Under the pieces are notes generated by a model that saw only the letters and a list, made by a program, of their open reading frames with translations, did not search any database and was not told where the DNA came from. A stretch of 5,837 bases of DNA, taken from positions 1 through 5,837 of the forward strand of contig JACPSV010000318.1 of assembly GCA_016193115.1 (NCBI GenBank), read 5' to 3'. This stretch comes from Elusimicrobiota bacterium (GTDB lineage Bacteria > Elusimicrobiota > Elusimicrobia > 2-02-FULL-39-32). Every line of letters begins with the position of its first letter. The stretch's first letter is position 1. A program made the translations under genes and the position numbers. Shown in pieces: positions 631 through 5,025 of the stretch.

Positions 631-2415
631 CTAGCGAATCAGAACTAGTTTGCCGGTTTCGGTGAGGGAGTCGTCTACCTTAAAACGGTATAGGTAAACG
701 CCGGGGGCTGCGGTTTCTCCCTCGTCGTTTTTGCCGTCCCAATCATATTCATAGACGAACTTCCTGTTTGCGATTGCGGTTCCGTTCGCTTTGATTAAGG
801 AAGAAGAAACTTCTCTCACCAACGCTCCGGAGAGGTCGTACAGGGAGAGCTGCACTTTTTGCGCGGCGCGGCTGGTATTCAAAACCACGGTGGTGACGGT
901 TCCCGCGGGAGCGCCTGATTTCTGAGAGTAGGAGGGTCCTCCCGGGTTCGGGAAATTGATCGCTCGCGTGACCTCCACGGAATCCGAGGAGAACGCTTTT
1001 TTCACGACCAGTTGACTGCCGGAAAAACCTGCGACTGTGATGCCCGACTGCGCTCCGCTAAAACTGTTGGAATGGGGAGCTGCGAATATGGTTTTGCTTT
1101 CGCTTCCCGGAAAAGGGTCGCTCTCTTTACCCGTGGTTGTGGCGACCGACCCGCTGCCTCCGGCTTCCACCAGATCCACCCCAAAGTTAGGAGAACCGTT
1201 GTTGATACTGTTCGCTTCCAGGCGGGACGGATCGGAAGCGATGGAATCATCCACATGCCAGATGAGGGTACCTTCCAAGAGGGAACCCAAAGGCAGACCG
1301 TCGTCATAGTTTTTTCCCGAGACGGAAGCGCGCGCCCTCCTTTCAATCAGAAAATATTCTTTGTTTCCGTCCACTCCTGTCACTCCGGAAATCGGCACGC
1401 GGACGTATGCGTTTGCGGAAGAGAGAGCCAGTTCCAATGTCAACGTCGTTCCGGACTCTTGAGCGGTCACAGTCTGCGGGTTCGAAAAAAATCCTAGAAA
1501 CTGTTTCGACCAGGCGTCCAAATGGGAAGGATTCGATCCGGCGGGACTACCCGTATAGACCCCGCTGTCCATCAAGCTCCATTTCCCCTCCACGCTTTGA
1601 GCGGAGGTTTTATAGAGGTCGGGCAGTCCCAGTTGGTGTCCGTACTCATGGCAGATGACTCCCAAAGGGTCAATTCCCTGCAACTCGCTTTCCGGAACGA
1701 TCGTGGCGCCGCTAAAGATCACGCCGTCCGCAACCAGAGGAACGAGCACCCCGTCCGACTGAGAGGAGGACGCGGGAACCGTGGGTGCGAACACAGACCA
1801 GATATTGTCCGTTTGGCAACCTGAATCGCTGGCGGTCTCTGCGCCTACGCCGGCATGGTAAACCATGATGTGGTTGTAGGGTTGGTTCCCGACTATGTCG
1901 GGTCGGGCATCGGAAAAATCGTAATCAGTGTTGGCTGCCGTCACCGCATCTTTCACGATTCCATTGAAATTAGAACAGATGCCCTGAGCATACGAGGATA
2001 AGGCCGAAGACATGCGGTAGGATCCTTGAGATCCGGCGTTCCCGCCGGTTGTCCTGTTAGTGACCGTCGCGCTGATGGAGAGAACGCCGTAAGAATTCTC
2101 CAGGTAAAATTTTTTCATGTTTTCCATAAATTGTTCAGTCTGAGATTTTGATTTGCTCATGTTTTGGTCGCTGTAGTCCACGCGAATGACGAGAACGTAG
2201 GAGGTGGTTGGGGAAAGAGGAACCTGGAAAAAAGGGGCAGCCCGCGCCGCCGCTAAGCGAGCCTGCGCCGCTTGAGAATTGACTCGACAAGTGGGAACGA
2301 CCGGTATGGGCGCATCGGGAGGCGGCGGAACAGAATGAGCGGCGCCTGCCCAGACGGATAGGAGTAGGGTCAGAACTAGGATATTCCGGACTTTATCTCT
2401 CTTCTCGAGTAGCAC
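631..2415 (-). CDS. Secreted M6-family zinc metalloprotease B with C-terminal FlgD-Ig/T9SS-like sorting domain
   Basis: This is a 594-residue predicted exported endopeptidase of the M6 (immune inhibitor A-like) group. Residues 1-28 form a signal peptide: basic KRDKVR, hydrophobic ILVLTLLLSVWAGA, likely cleavage after AHS. A Pro-rich stretch and PTCRVN (C43) follow. The zinc site is HEYGHQLGLPD, with H256, E257, H260 and probably D266 as third ligand; WSLMD (M282) follows, as a Met-turn would. Further family blocks are LIWHVDD (385-391) and DPFPG (433-437). From about residue 487, FPNP leads into a beta domain (LSLYDLSGALVRE, DWDGKNDEGE, APGVYLYRF, GKLVLIR) like FlgD-Ig/type-A CTDs. Target proteins are unknown. 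The start is GTG, 23 bp inside the preceding barrel gene. The frame is open back to a TAG with no ATG, GTG or TTG before this one, and no strong ribosome site is seen. C147 and C200 have no counterpart in protease A. It is the last gene of the operon. Confidence 0.9.
   Translation of the reverse strand: MLLEKRDKVRNILVLTLLLSVWAGAAHSVPPPPDAPIPVVPTCRVNSQAAQARLAAARAAPFFQVPLSPTTSYVLVIRVDYSDQNMSKSKSQTEQFMENMKKFYLENSYGVLSISATVTNRTTGGNAGSQGSYRMSSALSSYAQGICSNFNGIVKDAVTAANTDYDFSDARPDIVGNQPYNHIMVYHAGVGAETASDSGCQTDNIWSVFAPTVPASSSQSDGVLVPLVADGVIFSGATIVPESELQGIDPLGVICHEYGHQLGLPDLYKTSAQSVEGKWSLMDSGVYTGSPAGSNPSHLDAWSKQFLGFFSNPQTVTAQESGTTLTLELALSSANAYVRVPISGVTGVDGNKEYFLIERRARASVSGKNYDDGLPLGSLLEGTLIWHVDDSIASDPSRLEANSINNGSPNFGVDLVEAGGSGSVATTTGKESDPFPGSESKTIFAAPHSNSFSGAQSGITVAGFSGSQLVVKKAFSSDSVEVTRAINFPNPGGPSYSQKSGAPAGTVTTVVLNTSRAAQKVQLSLYDLSGALVREVSSSLIKANGTAIANRKFVYEYDWDGKNDEGETAAPGVYLYRFKVDDSLTETGKLVLIR
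2393..2415 (-). other. 23-bp gene overlap, barrel protein stop / protease B GTG start
   Basis: The barrel protein stop (2393-2395) lies downstream of the protease B GTG start (2413-2415) in a different frame. The nearest purine-rich stretch, GAAAGAAGAA, ends about 13 nt before the GTG, which is a poor Shine-Dalgarno match. Initiation is therefore probably coupled to ribosomes finishing the barrel gene. That coupling is inferred. Confidence 0.6.
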
Positions 2416-3373: not shown

Positions 3374-5025
3374 CTTGCTATGGCAACCATCCTTTTCGTC
3401 TCAATCCCACCGCCTTCAATCGTAACGATGTAGATTCCCGACGATACCGTGTTCCCGTCTGAGTTGAGACTGTTCCAGCGCAATACGGTCTGCGATCCGG
3501 CCGTGACAGAACTGTTTGTTTCCCAAACCAGATCGCCGTTTAGAGTGTAGATTTTAAGTGTCACGGCGCCGGATTGGGATGGTCGGATACCAAACAGGGT
3601 GCCTTCCCCCAAGTTAGGATTCGCGTACCCTTGGACGCCTCCCGTAATCACGACAGATCCCGGCGTGGTGTTCCGGACAATCGCTGGATTATTGAAGGGT
3701 GTTTTAAGGAGCAGGGAAATGGAAGAAGATCCGGGACTGGATATGTTGGAAACCTCCACACCGGAATCTTTCCCGTTGTATGCGTTTGATTTGGGAGACT
3801 GGAAATGACTGTTGTTGGCGGTTCCCGGCCAGGGGTCTCCCGCATCTCCTTGATTAGTGGAAGGATCCGAACTGTCCGCTTCCACCAGTTCGACGCCTTT
3901 CCGGGTTGAATCGGCGTTGATATTGTTCGCGTTGAGCCGTGTAGAGTTAGAGGCGATGGAATCGTCCACATGCCAAATGAGGAGTCCTTGTCCCGGCAAA
4001 GCCGTATCGTAACTGGCTCCGCCTGTGCGACGGTATTCCAACATAAAATATTCGTTCTCGCCGCCCACGTCGCTAGCCGGAATCGGAATTCGGAAAAAAC
4101 CGTTGCGGGTTGTTTCCGACTGCGTGATGGAGGTTGAAAGTTCCTGAGTGAAAGAGATGGTTTGCGGAGAAGAAAAACCCAAAAACTGTTTGCTCCAAGG
4201 GTCCATGTGAGCTGGTTTGGAACCGACGGGATCTCCCAGATAGATGCCGTAATCCATCAAACTCCAAACTCCAACGACGTTGGAGGAAGGACTTGTTCCC
4301 GTGTTGTAAAGGTCGGGCAGTCCCAGTTGGTGTCCATACTCGTGACAAATCACTCCCAGGGGATCAATCGTTCCGGACTCTCTTTCCGGAACGAAAGTCA
4401 CTCCGGGAAACGTCTTACCGCTGGCCGCGGGTCCGCCGGCAATATTGGAAAAATAGACAGACCAGATATTGCTGTTAGACGTAGTTTCAGCGCCTGCGCC
4501 CGCATGATAGATCATCAAATGGTCGTAGGAAGAAAAGTTGAAACCTGCCGTAGTCGCCACGGCGATGGCGTCCAGAGCCAACTCCGAATACTTGCTGCTG
4601 ATTCCACTGGCGTAGTAACTATGCGTTTGGGGCATCCGAAAAGAACCTTCAGCGCCTGCGCCGCCGTTAGTGACGGTTGCAGTGACGGTCACGAGGTTGT
4701 ACGAATTTTCCAGATAGAAGTTTTTGTGGTTTGTGAAAAGACTTTCGGTCTGAGCTTTGGTCTTGGTCATTGTGTTATCCGAAAAATCAATACGCAAGAT
4801 CGCAACCTTGTAGGTGGTTGCCGAGATGGGCGGCGCAAATCCGGGAGCGAACAGCGCTTGGATATTTGTCCGTTCCAAAAGGGCGCCCGGGTTTACATGG
4901 CAGGTCGGCTTCTCCGGTTTAGGAACTCCGGGTAAAGGCGGTACAGCTATCGCTTCAGAAGCCGCAGCGAGAAGAGTGAAGAGAAGGAAGAGTGGGTAAT
5001 TACGTGCCTTCTTGCCAGCTTGCAA
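3370..5025 (-). CDS. Secreted M6-family zinc metalloprotease A with C-terminal FlgD-Ig/T9SS-like sorting domain
   Basis: This is a 551-residue predicted exported protease, paralogue of the protease at the 3' end of the operon. The signal peptide spans about residues 1-27 (KKAR, then PLFLLFTLLAAASEAIA). The prosegment shares a VPPxPxxPxP pattern and PTCHVN (C42). The catalytic motif HEYGHQLGLPD gives H228, E229, H232 and probably D238, followed by WSLMD (M257). LLIWHVDDSIAS (348-359), NANNIN (365-370), GVELVEAD (377-384) and GDPWPG (396-401) match M6-family blocks. A C-terminal beta domain runs from about residue 466 (YANPNLGEG, LKIYTLNGDLVWE, SLNSDGNTVSSGIYIV) to the final RMVAIAR. Only two cysteines occur, C42 and C227, the second directly before the zinc motif. 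The start is TTG, 26 bp inside the adenosylhomocysteinase gene. It is the only ATG, GTG or TTG between an upstream in-frame TGA and the signal peptide, and it has no clear ribosome site. Family call strong; substrate unknown. Confidence 0.9.
   Translation of the reverse strand: MQAGKKARNYPLFLLFTLLAAASEAIAVPPLPGVPKPEKPTCHVNPGALLERTNIQALFAPGFAPPISATTYKVAILRIDFSDNTMTKTKAQTESLFTNHKNFYLENSYNLVTVTATVTNGGAGAEGSFRMPQTHSYYASGISSKYSELALDAIAVATTAGFNFSSYDHLMIYHAGAGAETTSNSNIWSVYFSNIAGGPAASGKTFPGVTFVPERESGTIDPLGVICHEYGHQLGLPDLYNTGTSPSSNVVGVWSLMDYGIYLGDPVGSKPAHMDPWSKQFLGFSSPQTISFTQELSTSITQSETTRNGFFRIPIPASDVGGENEYFMLEYRRTGGASYDTALPGQGLLIWHVDDSIASNSTRLNANNINADSTRKGVELVEADSSDPSTNQGDAGDPWPGTANNSHFQSPKSNAYNGKDSGVEVSNISSPGSSSISLLLKTPFNNPAIVRNTTPGSVVITGGVQGYANPNLGEGTLFGIRPSQSGAVTLKIYTLNGDLVWETNSSVTAGSQTVLRWNSLNSDGNTVSSGIYIVTIEGGGIETKRMVAIAR
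5000..5025 (-). other. 26-bp gene overlap, adenosylhomocysteinase stop / protease A TTG start
   Basis: The TAA of the adenosylhomocysteinase gene (5000-5002) lies inside the protease A gene, whose TTG start is at 5023-5025. No Shine-Dalgarno-like stretch is seen at normal spacing before the TTG. Low-level, coupled translation of the protease is the likely result. This is an inference from layout only. Confidence 0.55.

What the first reader, a model, noticed from the sequence alone, without database searches (positions are those of the whole stretch)
631..5025. M6 protease - PorV-like barrel - M6 protease cassette: a possible dedicated surface-secretion unit
Two paralogous secreted metalloproteases, both with FlgD-Ig/T9SS-type-A-like C-terminal domains, flank a PorV/UPF0164 outer-membrane protein, and all three are translationally coupled. 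In known T9SS, PorV carries CTD cargo at the outer membrane and is usually encoded away from individual cargo genes. A cargo-carrier-cargo operon would suggest a locally paired export route in a phylum outside Bacteroidota. Seen: gene order, overlaps, domains. Inferred: functional pairing.
Basis: partly seen in the sequence, partly recalled or inferred. Interest (0 to 1): 0.72.

Follow-up and report, generated by a model that had tools for sequence, protein, structure and literature searches.

The report
Secreted proteases with their own shuttle
In an Elusimicrobiota genome, the overlapping genes for two predicted secreted proteases flank the gene for an outer-membrane barrel that is predicted to carry the first protease to the cell surface; cargo genes directly followed by such a barrel gene turned up in all eight genomes of this phylum examined for it, and would extend a secretion system described so far from Bacteroidota and their kin.

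Summary
Real, and larger than the finding. Window genes (minus strand): ahcY > M6-1 > PorV-family barrel > M6-2, overlapping, both protease motifs intact. The genome is Elusimicrobiota. The block recurs in 3 of 3 family relatives.

Across eight Elusimicrobiota genomes, 88 of 124 PorV-family genes have a gene ending in a type-A-like sorting domain (CTD) directly upstream; 0.31 expected. Of 71 pairs, 40 share a 4-nt stop/start overlap, against 13 of 90 control neighbours. CTD and barrel distances covary within each of five genomes.

A divergent SprA translocon is found in 209 of 247 genomes and lies about 2.3-2.5 kb past M6-2. The catalytic domain of sortase PorU is found in 1 of 247.

Best reading: a type IX-like route with one PorV-type shuttle per cargo: the logic of Bacteroidota type B/SprF pairs, carried out with type A/PorV-like parts, probably without CTD removal. 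The barrel most likely serves M6-1; service to M6-2 is doubtful. Export itself is untested.

The parts
3370..5025 (-). M6-1: predicted secreted M6 metalloprotease with C-terminal sorting domain (551 aa, TTG start)
4330..4344 (-). HEYGH zinc-binding motif of M6-1 (residues 228-232)
   Evidence: invariant H228, E229, H232 among 35 M6 proteins
3373..3666 (-). CTD of M6-1 (about residues 454-551), type-A-like sorting domain
3370..3373 (-). ATGA stop/start overlap of M6-1 and barrel
   Evidence: same 4-nt overlap in 40 of 71 cargo-barrel pairs
2393..3373 (-). PorV-family outer-membrane barrel, predicted CTD shuttle (326 aa)
   Evidence: NF033709 108.3 bits, cut-off 90; profile search of solved structures finds PorV 6h3i_F, E 4e-31; best Foldseek match PorV of the RemA-CTD complex 8gl6_F
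2393..2415 (-). 23-nt overlap of barrel and M6-2
631..2415 (-). M6-2: predicted secreted M6 metalloprotease with C-terminal domain (594 aa, GTG start)
1636..1650 (-). HEYGH zinc-binding motif of M6-2
634..945 (-). C-terminal domain of M6-2, below the sorting-domain cut-off
   Evidence: FlgD_ig 28.4 bits, TIGR04183 19.8 bits; place
5000..5836 (-). ahcY (adenosylhomocysteinase, 3' part): conserved upstream neighbour
   Evidence: NF004005 452 bits; same neighbour in G053, G102 and G239:C30

Best explanation
The three overlapping genes most likely form a type IX-like export unit in which the PorV-family barrel is predicted to collect the first M6 protease by its C-terminal sorting domain from a SprA-like translocon and to hold it on the cell surface. 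Shown by calls: gene overlap, domain matches, recurrence of the block in relatives, recurrence of CTD-gene/barrel-gene pairs across eight genomes, covariation of CTD and barrel, a SprA homologue close by, and near-absence of the sortase catalytic domain in the phylum. Inferred: Sec export by the signal peptides, passage through SprA, binding of the CTD by its neighbour barrel, and retention. That would explain why cargo and barrel genes overlap and come in many diverged pairs, as argued for type B CTD/SprF pairs of Flavobacterium (PMC12618676). The barrel is most likely the partner of M6-1; M6-2 may share it or use another barrel of the genome.
For: Adjacency: 88 of 124 PorV-family genes in eight genomes have a CTD end directly upstream on the same strand, 0.31 expected by chance placement; own genome 11 of 14. 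In one search, 9 of 10 loci show the same (L048-L050 are the same records as G102, G053 and G239). Coupling: 40 of 71 pairs have a 4-nt stop/start overlap against 13 of 90 neighbouring ORF pairs without a barrel (Fisher p 3e-8). Covariation: within-genome Mantel r 0.74, 0.55, 0.42, 0.82 (p 0.001 or less) and 0.28 (p 0.024), still p 0.024 or less when close paralogues are dropped; across genomes the best-matching CTD and best-matching barrel belong to the same pair in 132 of 284 comparisons, 21.5 expected. Passenger change on a kept CTD-barrel block: L055 and L056 barrels 83% identical over 803 aa and CTD ends 81% over 193 aa, while the first 159 residues of the L055 cargo find no match in L056. 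Translocon: TIGR04189 matches in 209 of 247 genomes; profile A5 finds SprA 6h3i, E 3e-37; SprA-like ORFs 2.5 kb past M6-2 in L049 and 2.3 kb past a near-copy of the M6-2 3' end on own contig C36. Co-occurrence: SprA+/barrel+ 208, SprA+/barrel- 1, SprA-/barrel+ 16, SprA-/barrel- 22. No sortase: Peptidase_C25 in 1 of 247 genomes and in 0 of 4 of the window's family.
Confidence: 0.68

Rival explanations
1. Shared-shuttle type IX route: cargo and barrel genes are neighbours for regulation only, and any PorV-family barrel can serve any CTD, as the single PorV does for type A cargo in Bacteroidota.
For: In Bacteroidota all type A CTDs are reported to use one PorV (PMC12618676, abstract and passages). 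Some CTD genes here have no barrel directly behind them (62 of 150 listed CTD ends), so they must use another barrel if they are exported this way; the truncated M6-like gene on C141 is one.
Against: Covariation of CTD and barrel among old paralogues within a genome, up to 34 barrel genes in one genome (G239), and 4-nt overlaps in 40 of 71 pairs are not expected if one barrel suffices.
Confidence: 0.17
2. Uptake unit: the barrel is a FadL-like channel that imports products of the proteases, and the C-terminal Ig domains are only structural.
Against: By sequence the profile finds PorV at 4e-31 and TodX only at 0.03. Barrels pair with cargo of unrelated domain content, the common element being the CTD, which ends at or near the C-terminus, and barrels co-occur with SprA.
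Confidence: 0.06
3. Pairs are units of inheritance only: cargo and barrel duplicate and travel together, so their divergence is correlated, without cognate recognition.
For: Tandem and recent duplicates exist, for example the G239:C9 barrels with equal scores, and orthologous pairs are shared between G000 and G102 (11 of 11 concordant in one direction, 9 of 11 in the other).
Against: Correlation remains when barrel pairs closer than distance 0.55 are dropped, and passengers change while CTD and barrel stay together.
Confidence: 0.09

Closest known systems
Type B CTD / PorP-SprF pairs of the Flavobacterium johnsoniae type IX system (PMC12618676, PMC9143113; abstract and passages seen)
   Same: A barrel gene directly behind the cargo gene; cognate use of one shuttle per cargo; shuttle proposed as surface anchor; some shuttles linked to TPR/OmpA-type cell-wall proteins (PorE) there, and fused to TPR, CsgG and OmpA domains here.
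   Different: CTDs here are type-A-like (TIGR04183), not type B (TIGR04131), and barrels are PorV/PorQ-family, not PorP/SprF; another phylum; tens of pairs per genome in some members; cognate use is inferred here, measured there.
Type A CTD / PorV / PorU route of Bacteroidota
   Same: Type-A-like CTD at the C-terminus, PorV-family barrel, SprA homologue.
   Different: One PorV serves all type A cargo there (PMC12618676), many barrels here; the PorU catalytic domain was not found in 246 of 247 genomes, so cleavage and A-LPS attachment are not expected.
M6 immune inhibitor A metalloproteases (InhA2, 4yu5)
   Different: C-terminal sorting-type Ig domain in place of the InhA C-terminal parts; neighbouring barrel gene.
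FadL/TodX outer-membrane channels
   Same: Barrel fold.
   Different: Sequence profile reaches PorV, hardly TodX; no cut-off match to PF03349.

Membership tests
Type IX secretion system (canonical) | SprA/Sov translocon | tested here: inconclusive
   Clear homologue (TIGR04189 E 6.6e-49 for L068; SprA 6h3i E 3e-37; 209 of 247 genomes) but below the equivalog cut-off in all 247; own genome only a 183-aa fragment
Type IX secretion system (canonical) | Type A CTD at the cargo C-terminus: M6-1 | tested here: met
   TIGR04183 31.8 bits against 23
Type IX secretion system (canonical) | Type A CTD at the cargo C-terminus: M6-2 | tested here: not met
   TIGR04183 19.8 bits against 23
Type IX secretion system (canonical) | PorV equivalog | tested here: not met
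   NF033710 52.8 bits against 250; only the wider PorV/PorQ family NF033709 is met, 108.3 against 90
Type IX secretion system (canonical) | PorU sortase (C25 peptidase) | tested here: not met
Type IX secretion system (canonical) | PorL/PorM (GldL/GldM) motor | tested here: inconclusive
   TIGR03517 GldM 0 of 99 genomes, but no control rang; GldL not searched
Type IX secretion system (canonical) | PorK/PorN ring | not tested
Type IX secretion system (canonical) | CTD-dependent export | not testable with these tools
   needs experiment
Type B CTD / PorP-SprF pair | Type B CTD (TIGR04131) | tested here: not met
   no TIGR04131 match at E 0.1 or better for M6-1 or M6-2
Type B CTD / PorP-SprF pair | PorP/SprF barrel (PF11751) | tested here: not met
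   no PF11751 match for the window barrel; weak, below cut-off, in the L054 and L056 barrels
Type B CTD / PorP-SprF pair | shuttle gene directly behind cargo gene | tested here: met
   88 of 124 barrels
UPF0164 (PF03687) | Pfam match | tested here: not met
   window barrel absent from the hits
Peptidase M6 | M6 domain with HExxH | tested here: met

The most novel reading that the evidence does not exclude
Elusimicrobiota run a sortase-free type IX-like system in which every cargo brings its own PorV: the CTD is never cut off, each exported protein stays plugged into its private barrel, and the barrel, in some lineages fused to TPR or OmpA cell-wall domains, is the permanent surface anchor. Type A/PorV and type B/SprF of Bacteroidota would then be two derived solutions of an older one-cargo-one-shuttle design.
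Probability: 0.45. Interest if true: 0.87.

Novelty: new variant of a known kind. Interest (0 to 1): 0.74.

Why it matters
A review of type IX sorting domains states that its genes are absent outside the FCB phyla (PMC11285876, passages seen). A SprA homologue, type-A-like CTDs and many PorV-family barrels in Elusimicrobiota (which I recall as lying outside FCB) change that picture. Dozens of diverged CTD-barrel pairs are also a natural data set for reading the recognition code between a sorting domain and its shuttle, an open question in Bacteroidota, and the near-absence of PorU makes the question of how cargo stays on the surface testable.

Tried and rejected
Rejected or weakened: UPF0164 label for the barrel. 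Equal pairing of the barrel with both proteases. Structure as proof of sorting function: the CTD fold and the barrel fold both have close unrelated or FadL matches. SprA_N (PF14349) in the own genome gave nothing and no control rang, so TIGR04189 was used across the phylum. GldM search uninformative. Literature: searches returned no paper; one; five, of which I opened passages in three (PMC7031533, PMC12204202, PMC8542988) and not in PMC8857248 and PMC8026616; three (again without opening PMC8857248); one, passages read (PMC3909097). None of the passages seen reports a type IX system in Elusimicrobiota, but subscription papers and preprints were not searchable. The one search hits whose passages I saw matched only through reference lists or unrelated statements.

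The 71 pairs are 71 of the 88 adjacent pairs: G053 (12), G023 (2), G034 (1) and two contig-end pairs of G239 were not fetched. In some searches some negative genomes are not listed; I deduced their handles from gaps in the numbering before the cross-table. The first control (15 of 101) still held cargo-barrel pairs; one search repeats it without them (13 of 90, 11 pairs excluded before the open-ended ORFs were dropped). Named loci L048, L049 and L050 are the same records as G102:C8, G053:C25 and G239:C5 and are not counted twice as evidence.
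Full report

Where it is. The nearest named relatives are Elusimicrobia bacteria. The genome is a 1.5-Mb assembly in 321 contigs, 80% complete.

The block is kept. In 3 of 3 other genomes of the same family (G053, G102, G239) tblastn finds ahcY, M6-1, barrel and M6-2 in the same order; G239 also has a second M6-barrel pair without M6-2 and without ahcY. In the protein search, M6-1-like and M6-2-like hits often share a contig length, for example 15569, 16762 and 16360; I did not fetch those contigs.

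The block is one case of a rule. The own genome has 14 PorV-family places after merging of fragments. I searched barrels (NF033709) and CTDs (own profile A4) in eight genomes and asked for a CTD ending directly upstream of a barrel on the same strand: 88 of 124 barrels, against 0.31 expected from random placement. By genome: G000 11 of 14, G053 12 of 13, G102 11 of 12, G239 23 of 34, G164 15 of 21, G124 13 of 20, G023 2 of 6, G034 1 of 4. Conversely, 88 of 150 listed CTD ends have a barrel directly behind them and 62 do not. The cargo in front of the CTD is varied: M6 protease, YCF48-type propeller, fn3 arrays, carboxypeptidase-regulatory domains, carbohydrate-binding domains. Among 10 loci found with the window barrel alignment, 9 have a CTD gene directly upstream and one (L052) does not.

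Tight coupling. Of 71 pairs read in detail, 40 have a 4-nt stop/start overlap and 65 have a start within 30 nt of the stop. Neighbouring same-strand ORFs without a barrel behind give 13 of 90 and 55 of 90 by the same rule.

Covariation. Within each of five genomes the distance between two barrels correlates with the distance between their neighbouring CTDs: r 0.74 (G000), 0.55 (G102), 0.42 (G239), 0.82 (G164), all with permutation p of 0.001 or less, and 0.28 (G124, p 0.024). With barrel pairs closer than 0.55 dropped, r is 0.52, 0.55, 0.29, 0.61 and 0.28, p 0.0235 or less. Between genomes, best CTD match and best barrel match point to the same pair in 132 of 284 comparisons, against 21.5 expected; these comparisons are not independent. 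Joint inheritance would also give this, so it supports, but does not prove, cognate recognition. In L055 and L056 the barrel (83% identity over 803 aa) and the cargo end (81% over 193 aa) are kept while the first 159 residues of the L055 cargo find no match.

Translocon and sortase. TIGR04189 (SprA) matches 209 of 247 Elusimicrobiota genomes, none over the cut-off. Twelve ORFs of about 1750-1930 aa form a profile that finds SprA in the PDB at 3e-37. In L049 (= G053) the order after M6-2 is lptF, lptG (convergent) and then a SprA-like ORF starting 2.5 kb on; in the own assembly, contig C36 starts with a near-copy of the M6-2 3' end (381 nt of C36 align with 430 nt of the window: 15 mismatches, with gaps) and runs through the same two genes into a SprA-like start (183 aa, E 1e-41 with the phylum profile). 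lptF and lptG are named here by my reading of the sequences, not by a search. SprA and barrels co-occur: 208 both, 1 SprA only, 16 barrel only, 22 neither; within genus g42, which holds many small genomes, all 16 SprA-positive and 3 of 22 SprA-negative genomes have a barrel match. The C25 catalytic domain of PorU is found in 1 of 247 genomes, and the listed PorU-model matches cover only its CTD part.

Reading. [quoted passage not shown] PMC9143113, passages). The Elusimicrobiota arrangement follows the type B logic with type-A-like CTDs and PorV-family barrels. Without a detected PorU the CTD would not be removed, and each cargo would need its own barrel as anchor; barrels fused to TPR (L042, L057) or to CsgG, TPR and OmpA domains (L054, L056) fit an anchoring role. 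These last steps are inference.

M6-2. Its CTD scores 41.9 bits against the CTD paired with the barrel of C194 and 16.8 bits against the M6-1 CTD, so the covariation pattern does not point to the window barrel as its partner. It may still use it, since it has no barrel of its own directly behind it.

What is not shown.

Noticed in passing
L045:3674-5278 (own contig C95): One ORF holds an LTD domain, what looks by eye like half a CTD, and a PorV-family barrel; it could be a fusion, a deletion or a frameshift, and part of it reads as N.
   Followed up: partly
L054:641-3052, L056:7012-9414: PorV-family barrels fused to FlgO/CsgG, TPR and OmpA domains, resembling a one-chain version of the PorP-PorE complex.
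   Followed up: partly
L042:236-2188, L057:3410-4720: Barrels with C-terminal TPR repeats; the cargo gene sits directly upstream.
   Followed up: partly
window 1-449 and L047 (own contig C36): C36 and the window share a near-identical M6-2 3' end but part ways at window position 449: strain variation, a second copy, or an assembly join. A 103-aa ORF at 5-316 has no Pfam or NCBIfam match.
   Followed up: partly
L064-L075: SprA-like genes mostly lie beside two genes that look like lptF/lptG, and often beside a comF-like gene (by eye).
   Followed up: no
genus g42 genomes: Many small genomes of this genus have neither a SprA nor a barrel match, while larger ones have both: joint loss.
   Followed up: yes
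G006:C83 and C55 (L140, L141): Only genome of 247 with Peptidase_C25, as two half matches on different contigs.
   Followed up: no
PMC3909097: Poribacteria were reported to have type A sorting domains without Por structural genes; the same search with divergent SprA and PorV-family models may be worth doing there.
   Followed up: no
L046:2-1987 (own contig C141): A 5'-truncated third M6-like gene with a CTD (TIGR04183 24.9 bits) and no barrel directly behind it.
   Followed up: no
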